From Nitrospinota bacterium (GTDB taxonomy: Bacteria > Nitrospinota_A > UBA7883 > JACRLM01): a stretch of 64,000 nucleotides of DNA. Below the pieces are notes generated by a model. The model saw only the letters and a program-made list of their open reading frames with translations, was not told where the DNA came from and did not search any database. This document shows, piece by piece, positions 33,336 to 39,050 of this stretch; position 1 is the first letter of the stretch, and each line of letters starts with the position of its first letter. The position numbers and the translations under genes were made by a program. The stretch lies in assembly GCA_016208975.1 (NCBI GenBank), contig JACQXA010000004.1, positions 1,489,015 to 1,553,014 of the forward strand, in the 5' to 3' direction.

Positions 33336-35405
33336 CTATGGCGAGACTATCTTCGAAAAATCCACTATCTCCCCGAAAAGGCCCGATACCCCGCAAAGAA
33401 GGTTCAGCCTGTTCCGGCGGACATCTTCGTTCTCGGCCATCACCAGCACGTCGTCAAAAAAAGTGTCCACCACGCCCCGCAGGGCCGCTATGCGCTCCAG
33501 TGCCGGCAGATAGTCACGCTGTCCGGTAAAAGGGGCTATTTCGGACTGGGCCGCTCCGGTTTCCGCCAGCAGACGCCCCTCCACCTCTTTTTCGAACAGC
33601 TTTTCATTCACGGGGCCTATGGCATGGCCTTTTGTAATGTTGGCCACCCGTTTGAAAGTGATGGCCAGCGGCTCGAAAAAGTCCCTCTTCTTTAGCTCGG
33701 CCATGGCATAGGCTTTCATGTTGGCCCCCGACAGGTCGTCAAACCCGGCCGCCAGCACGGCGTCGGCCACGTCATAAGGGATGCCTCCGGAAACCCAGAG
33801 GTTCTTGAGCCGCCCGGAGAAAAATTCCATGACCTTCGGGATTACCTCTTCCGGCGCCGATTCCAGCTTGCCGCCGTAATTGCGCGCCGCCTCAAAGGTA
33901 AGCTCTTTTAGCGACACCGGCGTCTGCAACCGGTGGAAAAGGATCTGGATGACGCCCAGCGCGCTCCGCCGCAGGGCGAAAGGGTCCTGCGCGCCGGTGG
34001 GTATGAGCCCCACGCCGAAACAACCGGCCAGGGTGTCCATCTTGTCGGCCACCGCCACCACGGCCCCGGCCTGGGTGGCCGGTAATGTGTCTGCCATGCC
34101 TTTGGGCAGGTAATGCTCGTAAATGGCCGCGCAAACCTCGGCGCTCTCCCCGGAATGAAGGGCGTACTCGCGCCCCATAACCCCCTGGAGCTCCGGGAAT
34201 TCATAAACCATCTGGGTGGCCAGGTCGAACTTGCACAGCTCCGCCGCCCGCTCCGCCACGGATTTGGCCGAAGGGCAGACCCGCTCGGCCAGCCATGCCG
34301 ACAGGGCCCGGACCCGCGCGACCTTCTCGGACATCACTCCAAGTTTTTTCTGGTAAGTCACATGGGCCAGCTTGCCGTTGAAATAGTCCGGGGTTTTCTT
34401 GCGGTCTTCGTCGAGGAAGAACTTGGCGTCGGCCAGCCTGGCCCTCAACACCCGCCGGTAACCGGCGGTTACCACCGAGTCGTCGGGCGTATGGGTGTTG
34501 GAGACGCCTATGAATCCGTTCGTAAGTTTTCCGTCAAGGCCCCGCGCGGCGAACATTTTTTGATGGGCTTTCATGGAGGCTATGAGAAGCTCTTCGGGCA
34601 GGGCCAGAAACTCGTGGTCGAACTGCCCCCACAACGGCACGGGCCATTCGGTCAGGAACGTCACCACTCCCAAAAGCTCATCGTCCCCCACAAGCTGGGC
34701 GCCATGTAACGCCGCCTGGGCGGTGGCGTTGGCCACGATGGCCTCCCGCCGCTCATCGCTGTCGGCCAGGACGTGGTTTTCTTTCAGTTTTCGCAGGTAA
34801 TCTTCCCGGCCGGATACCTGTATTTCCTGGTCCCCCAGGAACCTGTGCCCCCGGGTGGACGGGCCGGACCATATTCCCGCCACTTCCATGGGCACAACCT
34901 GCCCGTCGAAAAGCATGACGATCCAGCGGATGGGCCTGGCGAACCGGGCCTCCCCGGCGCCCCAGACCATGGACTTGGGGAAGGGCAGGCCCAGGGTTAT
35001 TTTCGGCAGGGCCGAGGCCAGCGACCCGGCCACCTTCTCGCCCCCCTCTTCCACCTCCACGTATATGTATTCACCCTTGCCGGTGTTCTCCACGCGGATG
35101 GATTCAGGCTCCACCCCCTTGGACTTGGCGAAACCGTAACCCGCCTTGGTCAGCGAACCGCCCGAGTCGAACGCCGCTTTCGCCGGAGGCCCATACTGTT
35201 TTACCAGCCGTTGCGGCCGACGGTCCGGAATGTCTTTGATGGATATGGCAAGCCTTCTGGGAGTGGCGTAGGTCTGCGCATCGCCATATGGTATGCCAAG
35301 CCCCTCCAGATGGGCCAATACAGCTGTTTTTAAAGCTTCTACCGCCGGGCGGACATAACCTGCCGGAAGCTCTTCAACTCCGATCTCGTAAAGAAATTCG
35401 CTCAT
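33336..35405 (-). CDS. glyS: Glycyl-tRNA synthetase beta subunit
   Basis: 689 residues, the expected length for the beta subunit of the alpha2beta2 glycyl-tRNA synthetase. Signatures: N-terminal MSEFLYEIGVEELPAGYV and the tRNA-binding region with the GVFSNTHTPD-like segment, plus a C-terminal DALR-type anticodon-binding portion (around FAALRGVVDTFFDDVLVMA). It needs the alpha subunit GlyQ; usually glyQ directly precedes glyS, but here an AT-rich island lies upstream and no glyQ is seen in the window. It is 81 bases upstream of PPDK on the same strand. Confidence 0.97.
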   Translation of the reverse strand: MSEFLYEIGVEELPAGYVRPAVEALKTAVLAHLEGLGIPYGDAQTYATPRRLAISIKDIPDRRPQRLVKQYGPPAKAAFDSGGSLTKAGYGFAKSKGVEPESIRVENTGKGEYIYVEVEEGGEKVAGSLASALPKITLGLPFPKSMVWGAGEARFARPIRWIVMLFDGQVVPMEVAGIWSGPSTRGHRFLGDQEIQVSGREDYLRKLKENHVLADSDERREAIVANATAQAALHGAQLVGDDELLGVVTFLTEWPVPLWGQFDHEFLALPEELLIASMKAHQKMFAARGLDGKLTNGFIGVSNTHTPDDSVVTAGYRRVLRARLADAKFFLDEDRKKTPDYFNGKLAHVTYQKKLGVMSEKVARVRALSAWLAERVCPSAKSVAERAAELCKFDLATQMVYEFPELQGVMGREYALHSGESAEVCAAIYEHYLPKGMADTLPATQAGAVVAVADKMDTLAGCFGVGLIPTGAQDPFALRRSALGVIQILFHRLQTPVSLKELTFEAARNYGGKLESAPEEVIPKVMEFFSGRLKNLWVSGGIPYDVADAVLAAGFDDLSGANMKAYAMAELKKRDFFEPLAITFKRVANITKGHAIGPVNEKLFEKEVEGRLLAETGAAQSEIAPFTGQRDYLPALERIAALRGVVDTFFDDVLVMAENEDVRRNRLNLLCGVSGLFGEIVDFSKIVSP

Positions 35406-35679
35406 GAAAGCGTTGTTATCAATCCAAAATTTAAAAGGCGCAAGAAACCACCGGGGCCGGACGAAGGGCGATTGCTTTAGAGCAGGGTTTATGCGCCTGC
35501 CCGGCTTGCGGGAAATTATACCAGACAGTCCGCGAACAATGATTTTAATTCAGTATGTTTTGAGGCTGGAAATGCCTGTTCATAAGGAAAATAAACCACG
35601 CTTTTTTTCCTGTTGAATAAAGCCGGGCCCAGGAAAAATATTTCTATATCCACAACCGTAAAGGGAAAAATAAATTTTC

Positions 35680-35831
35680 GGTAGTGTCTCAGTTTGAAAT
35701 TACAGGGGAGATTCTTCACTTACGCTCAGAATGACAATATAAAAGCCGTCGATAACATTGTCATCCTGAGCGAAGCGCAAGCGAAGTGAAGGATCTGTCT
35801 ATTATTTGAGATTCAAACTGGGACACCACCT
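35680..35831. repeat. MITE-like palindromic element with terminal inverted repeats
   Basis: The left end GGTAGTGTCTCAGTTTGAAA and the right end TTCAAACTGGGACACCACC are imperfect inverted repeats. Inside, a second inverted pair (GATTCTTCACTT ... GCTCAGAATGACAAT against ATTGTCATCCTGAGCGAAG ... GAAGTGAAGGATC) makes the whole element a nested 150-bp palindrome around a central loop near 35745. It has no room for a protein. Elements with TCATCCTGAGCGAAG cores are widespread in several phyla. Confidence 0.75.
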
Positions 35832-36006
35832 AATTTTCAATTATCTTGCTTGCCTAAAATCTGATTTATCGTGCTTTGAAGGGGATCATGTTTTTCTTGT
35901 CACAACTAAGGCAGAGAAACAACGCTTAGAGAATTTGCTAAATTTGTTGGAACTGGCAAATTTTCGCGTGGAGCAAAACCGTAACATTTTGTTATCAGTA
36001 AGTTAA
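35806..36006 (+). pseudogene. Probable 3' remnant of an unknown gene
   Basis: The frame opens at a TTG inside the palindromic element and then reads YLACLKSDLSCFEGDHVFL and AEKQRLENLLNLLELANF to a TAA at 36004. A natural start is missing, so this looks like the C-terminal end of a gene cut by the element. A/T-ending codons. No family recognised. Confidence 0.3.
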
Positions 36007-36024
36007 TTTAGGTATTAATAAATT

Positions 36025-36369
36025 ATGGGAAGCTTAATTACTAGTATTACACGCCCAGATGATTCGCAAGATAATCCAGATCGTGGGCAAACTGGAACTA
36101 GACCTGCGCCCACAATTAATATTACTGAATATGCAGGCGATACTTCTGCAGTAGATGCGGCGCAAGTAGTTGCTGATGCTACAACAGATGCGGCCCAAGC
36201 GCAGGCTGACCTTGACACTCAGCTAGCCCAACTACAAATTGATTCAAATATGTCAATAGCTATGGCGCAACTAAGCTTTAGCATTGCATCTATGCTTTCA
36301 CAAATGAGCTATAATTTAGTATCGAAATTAAAACGAAAATGGATTATATTAGTTGTGTTGGATTTATGA
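36025..36369 (+). CDS. Unrecognised AT-rich ORF with helical C-terminus
   Basis: 114 residues. The N-terminal 45 residues are polar and low-complexity (TRPDDSQDNPDRGQTGTRPAP), then an Ala/Gln/Asp-rich helical stretch (about 45-75: VDAAQVVADATTDAAQAQAD) and an amphipathic Met/Ser-rich helix (about 78-100) ending in KLKRK and a hydrophobic tail. The form resembles small secreted or structural proteins, but no family is recognised. No clear ribosome site precedes the ATG. Its codon use (tta, gca, act) matches the island and not its neighbours, which suggests acquisition by transfer. Confidence 0.45.
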   Translation: MGSLITSITRPDDSQDNPDRGQTGTRPAPTINITEYAGDTSAVDAAQVVADATTDAAQAQADLDTQLAQLQIDSNMSIAMAQLSFSIASMLSQMSYNLVSKLKRKWIILVVLDL

Positions 36370-36677
36370 AGGAGGCTTGGATTAATTGAAGATGTGATGA
36401 AAACCCATATGGGGAAAAGCTGTGGAAAGACTGTTTAGAAAAATTTGTTGACGTACAACATATGGTGGCCTAGTATGTAGCTGGACACTACAGGATGTAG
36501 AAACATGAGGCGAATGTCGCGCCACATGGTTCTGGCTTGAAGATGTCCGCATCAGGGGGAGCAAAGTACGGGGGCTTTGGTGACAGACTTTTTCCAATAG
36601 CTCCAAACAGGTTGTAAGATGTTTACTTATATATACATAGTAATCAGCAAAATGATGTCATGAGGGAGGGGCTTATT

Positions 36678-39050
36678 ATGTCCATGAGCGGTTCTACCGG
36701 TTCCATCGAGCTGACCGACGTTAAGAAAACGGGGTTGGATTATTTGAGAGAATCCGGCGGGGAGCCGCCTGTGCCCGAAGACTATATTTCCGAAAACGCC
36801 ATCCGCGTGCTGGAGCGGCGGTATCTTAAAAAAGACGAGAACGGCGAGTTGGTGGAGACCCCGGCCCAGATGCTCCGCCGGGTGGCCAAGAACATAGCCC
36901 AGGCCGAGGCCCGCTATGGCTCGGTGGAAGACGTGTCATTGGCGGAGGATGGGTTTTACGGCCTCATGGCCCGGCTGGAGTTTCTGCCCAACTCCCCCAC
37001 CCTCATGAACGCGGGCCGGGAACTGCAACAGTTATCCGCATGTTTCGTGCTACCGGTGGAGGACTCCATGGAGTCCATATTCGACGCGGTGCGGGACACG
37101 GCGCTCATCCACAAATCCGGCGGCGGCACGGGTTTCTCATTTTCCCGCCTGCGCCCCAAGGGTAGCCGGGTAAAGACCACTTCCGGGGTTTCTTCCGGCC
37201 CGGTCTCTTTTATGAAAGTGTTCGACGCGGCCACCGAGTCCGTCAAACAGGGCGGCACCCGGCGCGGCGCCAACATGGGCATTTTGAGGGTGGACCATCC
37301 GGACATCCTGGAGTTTATAGACTGCAAGAGCGACAACAAGGGTTTTAACAACTTTAATATTTCCGTCACCATCACAGACGCTTTCATGCGCGCCGTGGAG
37401 GAGGGGAAAGATTACGACCTTATCGCCCCCCACAACGGCCAGCCCATCGGCAAGCTCAACGCCCGGATGGTGTTCGACAAGATAGTGAAATCCGCCTGGC
37501 TCAATGGCGACCCGGGGATTATTTTCATCGACCGGATAAACCGCGCCAACCCCACGCCCCAGGTGGGGGAGATGGAGTCCACCAACCCTTGCGGCGAACA
37601 GCCACTGCTTCCTTACGAGTCCTGCAACCTGGGCTCCATAAACCTGGCCCGCATGCTTAACGCGGACAACGAGCTGGATCTGGAGAAGCTGAGAAGGGTC
37701 ACCCATGTGGCGGTGCGGTTCCTGGACAACGTCATAGACATGAACCAGTACCCGCTCGACAAGATAGATAAAATGACCAAGGCCAACCGCAAGATAGGCC
37801 TGGGCGTTATGGGGTGGGCGGACATGCTTATAAAAATGGGGGTCCCCTACAATTCCGAGCGGGCCGTGCAACTGGCCGACGAGGTTATGCGCATCTTGAA
37901 CGCGGAGTCCAAGGCGGCCTCGGCGGAACTGGCGGCGCGGCGCGGGGCGTTCCCGAATTTTATGGGTTCCGCCTACGACAAGCCCGGCGCGCCCAAACTG
38001 CGCAACGCCACCACCACCACCATCGCCCCCACCGGCACCATCAGCATCATCGCCGGGGTTTCTTCCGGGATAGAGCCGTTGTTCGCCCTGTCGTTCATCC
38101 GCACGGTGATGGACAAGGACAAGCTGGTGGAGGTGAACCCCATATTCGAGGAAGCGGCCCACAAGCGCGGTTTTTACAGCAAGGAGCTTATGGAGAAGGT
38201 GGCCTACCACGGCCATATAGAGGACATGGAGGAGATGCCCGAGGATGTCCGCAAGGTGTTCGTGACGGCCCACGGCATCACGCCGGAATGGCATGTGCGG
38301 ATGCAGGCGTCGTTCCAGCGTCACACCGACAACGCCGTTTCGAAAACCGTCAACTTCGGCAACTCCGCCACGGTGGACGACGTGAGCAAGGTCTATATGC
38401 TGGCCTACCATTTGGGTTGCAAGGGGGTCACCATCTACCGCGACGGCTCCAGGGACGAGCAGGTGCTTTCCACCGGCGCAACCTATGACAAGGGCAAGGA
38501 GCCGGGCAAGGCCCAGGAGAAAGTCAAACTGTCCGTGCGCCCCCGGCCCAAGATCGTGCTGGGCTCCACCCAGAGGATCCACACAGGTTGCGGTAGCATG
38601 TACGTCACCTTGAACCAGGACGAAAGCGGCCGGGCGCTGGAGCTTTTCACCCAGCTGGGGAAAGCCGGCGGGTGCGCCGCCTCGCAGACCGAATCCATCG
38701 GCAGGCTGGTGTCCCTGGCTTTGCGGGCCGGGATAGACCTGGAGGAAATCCGCGCCCAGCTTTCGGGCATCTCCTGCCACCAGCCCTCGTGGGACAACAA
38801 CGAGCGGATACTCTCCTGCGCCGACGCCATAGGCAAGGCCATCAATAACTGGCGGAAGATGAATGGCGCGGCGCAGAAGGCCGAAGCCCATGGCTCCGCC
38901 AGCCCGGCCAAATCCGTTCCGGCCAAGCCTGATATGGGCGACGCCCCAACGGTTGCCGTGGGCGCCTGCCCGGACTGCGGCTACCCCCTGAACTTCACCG
39001 AGGGGTGCCTGCTGTGCTCCAACCCGGATTGCGGGTATTCCAAGTGTTGA
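36678..39050 (+). CDS. nrdJ: Adenosylcobalamin-dependent ribonucleotide reductase, class II
   Basis: 790 residues from ATG 36678, preceded by GGAGGGG; the frame extends 18 bases further upstream. Reduces ribonucleotides to deoxyribonucleotides without oxygen dependence. Signatures: LSACFVLPVEDSMESIFDAV (redox Cys), the active-site segment NPCGEQPLLPYESCNLGSINL, HKSGGGTGFSFSRLRPKGS, and a C-terminal zinc-ribbon (CPDCGYPL ... CLLCSNPDCGYSKC). No cobalamin riboswitch is recognisable in its AT-rich leader, although B12 dependence would make one plausible. A strong terminator follows at 39073. Confidence 0.97.
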   Translation: MSMSGSTGSIELTDVKKTGLDYLRESGGEPPVPEDYISENAIRVLERRYLKKDENGELVETPAQMLRRVAKNIAQAEARYGSVEDVSLAEDGFYGLMARLEFLPNSPTLMNAGRELQQLSACFVLPVEDSMESIFDAVRDTALIHKSGGGTGFSFSRLRPKGSRVKTTSGVSSGPVSFMKVFDAATESVKQGGTRRGANMGILRVDHPDILEFIDCKSDNKGFNNFNISVTITDAFMRAVEEGKDYDLIAPHNGQPIGKLNARMVFDKIVKSAWLNGDPGIIFIDRINRANPTPQVGEMESTNPCGEQPLLPYESCNLGSINLARMLNADNELDLEKLRRVTHVAVRFLDNVIDMNQYPLDKIDKMTKANRKIGLGVMGWADMLIKMGVPYNSERAVQLADEVMRILNAESKAASAELAARRGAFPNFMGSAYDKPGAPKLRNATTTTIAPTGTISIIAGVSSGIEPLFALSFIRTVMDKDKLVEVNPIFEEAAHKRGFYSKELMEKVAYHGHIEDMEEMPEDVRKVFVTAHGITPEWHVRMQASFQRHTDNAVSKTVNFGNSATVDDVSKVYMLAYHLGCKGVTIYRDGSRDEQVLSTGATYDKGKEPGKAQEKVKLSVRPRPKIVLGSTQRIHTGCGSMYVTLNQDESGRALELFTQLGKAGGCAASQTESIGRLVSLALRAGIDLEEIRAQLSGISCHQPSWDNNERILSCADAIGKAINNWRKMNGAAQKAEAHGSASPAKSVPAKPDMGDAPTVAVGACPDCGYPLNFTEGCLLCSNPDCGYSKC

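What the first reader, a model, noticed from the sequence alone, without database searches (positions are those of the whole stretch)
35406..36677. AT-rich island with alien codon use between glyS and nrdJ
A 1.27-kb block is far richer in A/T than both flanks and holds a MITE-like palindrome, a gene remnant cut by it and an unrecognised 114-codon ORF with A/T-ending codons. It lies where glyQ would normally precede glyS. It looks like imported DNA. It may also have separated glyQ from glyS.
Basis: partly seen in the sequence, partly recalled or inferred. Interest (0 to 1): 0.55.

Follow-up and report, generated by a model that had tools for sequence, protein, structure and literature searches.

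The report
Native nrdJ control region beside transposon
The AT-rich gap is not one imported island: its right-hand part looks like the ancestral control region of a DNA-precursor gene with a predicted DNA-damage (SOS) switch, and the rest is a gene leader, a common mini-transposon and a short stretch of possibly foreign DNA.

Summary
The AT-rich block is real (40.6% GC; window 57%), but it is a composite. From left to right it holds the glyS leader; a 151-bp MITE at 35680-35830, one of dozens in this genome; about 0.5 kb without detectable relatives, carrying an orphan 114-codon ORF; and, from 36322 on, the native upstream region of nrdJ. That last part is not an import. It holds two NrdR-type boxes 32 bp apart, as do all 22 phylum nrdJ loci tested. 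Upstream lie a DnaA-like box and a tandem CGAA-N7-CGAA repeat. A matrix trained only on lexA promoters ranks this repeat first in the 64-kb window. The same repeat precedes recA, lexA and Y-family polymerase genes in the phylum, so I read it as a LexA (SOS) operator. glyQ is never next to glyS in these relatives, so nothing separated them, and the MITE cut no longer reading frame. Only the middle segment may be imported: its ORF has strong AT-biased codon periodicity, and its end runs into the SOS operator. The organism belongs to Nitrospinota. LexA control of nrdJ is predicted, not shown.

The parts
33336..35405 (-). glyS, glycyl-tRNA synthetase beta subunit
   Evidence: PF02092 and TIGR00211, full length
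35406..35545 (-). glyS leader and promoter side; extended -10-like TGGTATAAT on the minus strand at 35515-35523 (read from the sequence, not found by the promoter scan)
   Evidence: sequence; GC about 50% for 35406-35520
35680..35830 (.). 151-bp MITE; ends GGTAGTGTCTCAGTTTGAA / TTCAAACTGGGACACCACC
   Evidence: at least 41 other copies at 92-98% identity; 208 end-pattern hits against 1 in the control; target duplications in sister copies
35672..35679 (.). left copy of the target duplication (AAATTTTC)
35831..35838 (.). right copy of the target duplication (TAATTTTC, 7 of 8)
36025..36369 (+). orphan 114-codon ORF with AT-biased codons; last 16 codons (stop included) overlap conserved nrdJ control DNA
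   Evidence: no homologue; period-3 signal
36322..36340 (+). predicted LexA (SOS) operator TCGAAATTAAAACGAAAAT (CGAA-N7-CGAA)
   Evidence: top site of the window under a lexA-only matrix; conserved in the order
36322..36350 (+). promoter-like TCGAAA-17-TATATT overlapping the operator (candidate distal nrdJ promoter)
   Evidence: consensus match only
36421..36429 (+). DnaA-box-like TGTGGAAAG
   Evidence: similar site in 8 of 10 order loci compared, this one included
36448..36476 (+). proximal nrdJ promoter TTGACG-17-TAGTAT
   Evidence: TTGAC next to box 1 in nearly all relatives
36453..36468 (+). NrdR-type box 1 GTACAACATATGGTGG
36485..36500 (+). NrdR-type box 2 ACACTACAGGATGTAG, 32 bp from box 1
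36678..39050 (+). nrdJ, B12-dependent class II ribonucleotide reductase (start at 36678 chosen for the GGGAGGGG before it)
   Evidence: NF006417, TIGR02504

Best explanation
The block is a spacer between two divergent genes, built of four pieces: (a) the glyS leader; (b) a MITE that inserted on its own into an AT-rich target, making an 8-bp duplication; (c) about 0.5 kb of AT-rich DNA without known relatives, probably the decayed remains of a foreign or lineage-specific gene; (d) the intact control region of nrdJ. In (d) LexA would sit on the tandem CGAA-N7-CGAA operator at 36322-36340 and block a distal promoter; NrdR would sit on the box pair over the proximal promoter when dATP is high; DnaA may act between them. 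nrdJ would then rise on DNA damage and when dATP is low. Shown: the elements, their conservation and spacing, and that lexA, recA and nrdR genes are present. Inferred: protein binding, the distal promoter, DnaA's part, and the foreign origin of (c).
For: MITE family and duplications. NrdR box pair in 22 of 22 nrdJ loci, scores 29-36 of 40, against a maximum of 26 in 356 control blocks; nrdR in 22 of 24 genomes, this one included. lexA in 23 of 24 genomes, with a site of at most 4 mismatches before 21 of 23. lexA-only matrix ranks the nrdJ site first in the window, 22.4 against 15.1, also without this genome's own lexA site. A pattern taken from nrdJ regions finds 37 places in 24 genomes (reversed control 16), 12 of them at recA, lexA, Y-family or dnaE-type polymerase genes and 5 at nrdJ. 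SOS-to-box spacing here, 131 bp, lies within the 127-151 bp of relatives, so no insertion lies between them.
Against: No binding or expression data. The nrdJ site has 2 mismatches to the pattern and lies about 130 bp before the proximal promoter, not on it as at lexA. Of 11 loci of the order, G003 lacks the site and G004 and G005 score only about 14; in the other main family of the class only G012 of 10 is clear. 20 of the 37 pattern places are not at SOS genes or nrdJ. A LexA-box-like sequence at Vibrio cholerae nrdA did not bind LexA (PMC5963079, passages). Piece (c) could be native but fast-changing.
Confidence: 0.75

Rival explanations
1. The whole 1.27 kb is one imported island, which arrived with its MITE and split the glyS region.
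For: Low GC over the whole length; no relatives for the middle part; A/T-ending codons in the ORF.
Against: The right part is conserved in position and function in the phylum; the MITE family is native to the genome; glyQ is not next to glyS in relatives.
Confidence: 0.05
2. The middle segment is not imported but native intergenic DNA with a lineage-specific (orphan) gene at 36025-36369.
For: ORF-free gaps here are often AT-rich; the only family-mate held has a contig end 540 bp before nrdJ, so absence in near relatives is untested; the ORF starts just after a stop and has a period-3 signal.
Against: GC3 of 0.26 against 0.75-0.82 in glyS and nrdJ, and the frame runs into conserved operator DNA.
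Confidence: 0.4
3. The tandem CGAA repeat is the site of another regulator or an A-rich promoter element, not of LexA.
For: No binding data; at nrdJ it lies far upstream of the main promoter and in the opposite orientation to lexA; 20 of 37 pattern places are elsewhere.
Against: It overlaps the lexA promoter in most genomes and precedes recA and Y-family polymerase genes, which with lexA are core LexA targets (PMC8565304, passage).
Confidence: 0.12

Closest known systems
Alphaproteobacterial LexA operator GTTC-N7-GTTC
   Same: Direct repeat with 11-bp period, at recA, lexA and damage-polymerase genes (motif from PMC8565304, passage)
   Different: Half-site is CGAA (TTCG), not GTTC; phylum is Nitrospinota; also found upstream of nrdJ
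NrdR box pairs of ribonucleotide reductase promoters
   Same: Two boxes about three helix turns apart over the promoter, nrdR in the genome (PMC9110341, passages)
   Different: Combined here with a DnaA-like site and a predicted LexA operator
DnaA control of Escherichia coli nrdAB
   Same: DnaA-box-like site before an RNR promoter (PMC8203912, passages)
   Different: Class II gene; only sequence resemblance tested
MITEs (miniature inverted-repeat transposable elements)
   Same: Short, non-coding, terminal inverted repeats, 8-bp target duplications, many near-identical copies
   Different: Parent transposase not sought or identified here

Membership tests
MITE | Short element with terminal inverted repeats | tested here: met
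   151 bp; inverted ends found
MITE | Many copies in the genome | tested here: met
   at least 41 further copies; 208 end hits
MITE | Target-site duplication | tested here: met
   8 bp; 15 of 29 perfect, 23 of 29 at least 7/8, of 30 loci inspected
MITE | Related autonomous transposon supplying the transposase | not tested
NrdR-controlled promoter | Two NrdR boxes about 31-32 bp apart over the promoter | tested here: met
NrdR-controlled promoter | nrdR gene in the genome | tested here: met
   C4:329149-329589, 186 bits
NrdR-controlled promoter | NrdR binds the boxes | not testable with these tools
   needs an experiment
LexA (SOS) operator | lexA and recA genes in the genome | tested here: met
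LexA (SOS) operator | Same motif before lexA itself | tested here: met
   21 of 23 lexA promoters with at most 4 mismatches; two sites at this genome's lexA
LexA (SOS) operator | Same motif before other core SOS genes | tested here: met
   recA 2, Y-family polymerase 7, dnaE-type 2, lexA 1 among 37 places
LexA (SOS) operator | Operator overlaps the promoter it controls | tested here: inconclusive
   overlaps only a weak promoter-like match
LexA (SOS) operator | LexA binds; gene induced by DNA damage | not testable with these tools
   needs an experiment
Imported genomic island | Whole block foreign and absent from relatives | tested here: not met
   right part conserved
FMN riboswitch | Score at or above the Rfam gathering cut-off | tested here: not met
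   24.4 bits against 66.2; none in the whole-genome search

The most novel reading that the evidence does not exclude
Nitrospinota use a direct-repeat LexA operator, CGAA-N7-CGAA, that I have not seen described, and in the window's order the class II ribonucleotide reductase is itself an SOS gene, with LexA, DnaA and NrdR control joined in one upstream region. In this genome a foreign gene fragment now ends inside the LexA operator, so the operator is read as codons.
Probability: 0.6. Interest if true: 0.55.

Novelty: new variant of a known kind. Interest (0 to 1): 0.45.

Why it matters
LexA operators differ between bacterial groups; PMC8565304 speaks of 17 distinct motifs (passage). A proposed operator for Nitrospinota would let SOS regulons be predicted in a phylum known here mostly from metagenome assemblies. 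Direct LexA control of a class II reductase would tie dNTP supply to damage repair; the RNR promoter I read about that carries a LexA-box-like sequence, Vibrio cholerae nrdA, did not bind LexA (PMC5963079, passages). It is also a caution: an AT-rich gap need not be imported, and an unrecognised gap may be a conserved control region.

Tried and rejected
Separation of glyQ from glyS: rejected. MITE cutting a gene: rejected. FMN riboswitch: sub-threshold match at 35469-35628, not recovered in a whole-genome search, poor fit in its 3' half, no riboflavin gene behind it; treated as chance or decay. Homology of the 114-codon ORF: none in Pfam, none above cut-off in NCBIfam, none in viral contigs, genome contigs, 96 other genomes, phages or plasmids. 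Its single-sequence model is one long helix after 40 loose residues (mean pLDDT 72.7, pTM 0.34), too weak for a fold search, and none was run. The short frame left of it: no relatives in Pfam, NCBIfam or viral contigs. SOS-pattern hits inside a hisB-like reading frame in G007 and G008 (L099, L111; G011 shows the same 19 bases, L100) are counted among the 20 places that are not SOS genes. One search joined the MITE flanks with a one-base error; one search repeats it correctly and is the one cited. Segment GC values use MITE ends shifted by one base. One search lists this genome twice (L033, L057); it is counted once. In one search nearest genes were found by a simple ORF rule, so some of the 20 unassigned places may be misjudged.

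Literature. LexA with Nitrospinae, Nitrospina and Nitrospinota gave 0, 2 and 0 papers; the two were seen as a listing with starts of abstracts and are on other subjects. LexA with nrdJ and SOS gave 7 papers, seen as a listing except PMC4409342 (passages). Searches were seen as listings, with passages read of PMC8565304, PMC9110341, PMC5963079, PMC8203912 and PMC5738425. Only open-licence papers are held, and I did not see the full list of known LexA motifs.

Full report
WHERE. The window is C4:1489015-1553014 of a 2.97-Mb, four-contig genome. Its only family-mate held, G001, has nrdJ at the same contig position as a locus titled 'Nitrospinota bacterium isolate nNGHbin12', so the window most likely belongs to Nitrospinota. 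That is an inference from matching coordinates.

OBSERVATION. Between glyS (minus strand, start at 35405) and nrdJ (plus strand, start at 36678) GC falls to 40.6%. In a 300-kb sample of the same genome 16 of 5625 overlapping windows of this length are as low. ORF-free gaps are AT-rich in general: median 46.6% GC, 7 of 51 at or below 40.6%, longest 640 bp. What is unusual is the length of the AT-rich run, not the composition of each part.

MITE. The palindrome is a 151-bp element at 35680-35830. At least 41 other copies exist at 92-98% identity; only 40 of 126 candidates were scored, so this is a lower bound. The end pattern with up to 2 mismatches occurs 208 times in the genome, against 1 for the reversed control. 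Of 30 loci inspected 29 had locatable ends, all 150-151 bp long; 15 of 29 have a perfect 8-bp target duplication and 23 of 29 at least 7 of 8, this one included. Full-length copies were reported only in this genome; G001 and others match in short pieces. With the element removed no frame longer than 57 codons crosses the site.

glyQ. It lies 0.95 Mb away on the same contig. None of the 49 glyS or nrdJ loci contains it, including 15 relatives with at least 1.4 kb upstream of glyS. The block did not separate glyQ from glyS.

nrdJ CONTROL REGION. Upstream of nrdJ all 22 loci with a usable start (this genome and one locus from each of 21 relatives) have two NrdR-type boxes 31-32 bp apart; in nearly all, TTGAC stands at or just before box 1. 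Scores are 29-36 of 40 (30 here); the best of 356 control blocks of the window is 26. This fits the published geometry of two boxes about three helix turns apart (PMC9110341, passages). nrdR is present here and in 22 of 24 genomes in all. Between 32 and 55 bp before box 1 lies a DnaA-like site in 8 of 10 order loci compared.

SOS OPERATOR. About 130 bp before box 1 lies a tandem repeat RCGAAAATNNNRCGAAAAT in several order members; the distance is 131 bp here. I searched this pattern, taken from nrdJ regions alone, in 24 genomes with one mismatch allowed: 37 places, against 16 for the reversed pattern. All 37 were looked at. Seventeen lie upstream of, or overlap the predicted start of, nrdJ (5), Y-family polymerase genes (7), dnaE-type polymerase genes (2), recA (2) and lexA (1); twenty lie elsewhere. 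Eight of these proteins were named by NCBIfam, lexA and nrdJ by their searches, and three Y-family ones by the N-terminal sequence printed. The reverse test also holds. lexA was found in 23 of 24 genomes, and 21 of 23 have a site with at most 4 mismatches in the 250 bp before it. A matrix built from those 21 sites, with no nrdJ data, puts 36322-36340 first in the 64-kb window, 22.4 against 15.1 for the next; it stays first without this genome's own lexA site. The 300-kb sample holds one further site of at least 17, before an alpha/beta-hydrolase-like ORF, in a promoter laid out like that of lexA (the ORF's name is my reading of its sequence).

RESULTS AGAINST. In the window's order 8 of 11 nrdJ loci score at least 16; G003 has no site, and G004 and G005 score about 14, though near the expected distance. 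In the other main family of the class only G012 of 10 is clear; G023, outside the class, has an A-rich 18.2 that I do not trust. So SOS control of nrdJ looks like a trait of the window's order. The site overlaps a promoter-like TCGAAA-17-TATATT; six such matches were found in the block where shuffles give 2.9, so the distal promoter is weakly supported and its repression is inference. In Vibrio cholerae a LexA-box-like sequence at nrdA did not bind LexA (PMC5963079, passages).

THE MIDDLE. Because the SOS-to-NrdR spacing is the ancestral one, any import must end at or before 36321. The 114-codon ORF runs 16 codons (stop included) into conserved DNA. Its length alone is not significant (66 of 1000 shuffles), but its period-3 GC pattern is: chi-square 16.9, reached by 0 of 657 shuffled ORFs of at least 100 codons, and 19.5 when the conserved tail is dropped. 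With GC3 of 0.26 and no homologue found, this fits a fragment of an AT-rich foreign gene cut off at the operator, or a lineage-specific gene. Import is not proved.

VERDICT. The block is a composite and mostly explained. Its interest lies in what looked like anonymous AT-rich DNA: a predicted LexA operator of direct-repeat type, like the alphaproteobacterial GTTC-N7-GTTC in geometry (PMC8565304, passage) but with a CGAA half-site, upstream of a class II reductase that also carries NrdR boxes. I found no paper on LexA in this phylum in the searches named.

Noticed in passing
window 35469-35628 (+): Sub-threshold FMN riboswitch match (24.4 bits; E 0.004-0.005), overlapping the glyS promoter side, with no riboflavin gene after it.
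   Followed up: partly
L236:15980-16807 (G000:C4 about 1116000): Two CGAA-type repeats over a TTGACT promoter, laid out as at lexA, before an alpha/beta-hydrolase-like ORF: a possible further SOS gene.
   Followed up: partly
L240 (G000:C4:2100001-2120000): Long low-GC tract (down to 38%), the only place in the 300-kb sample as AT-rich as this block over 1254 bp; possibly a real island.
   Followed up: no
L051 (G016, upstream of glyS): A related-looking inverted-repeat element (GGTAGTGCTTCAGTTTGGATC...) lies just before glyS in a distant class member.
   Followed up: no
G000:C3:58977-59302 and C1:322657-322850: MITE end pairs 326 and 194 bp apart instead of 151, so longer variants of the element exist.
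   Followed up: no
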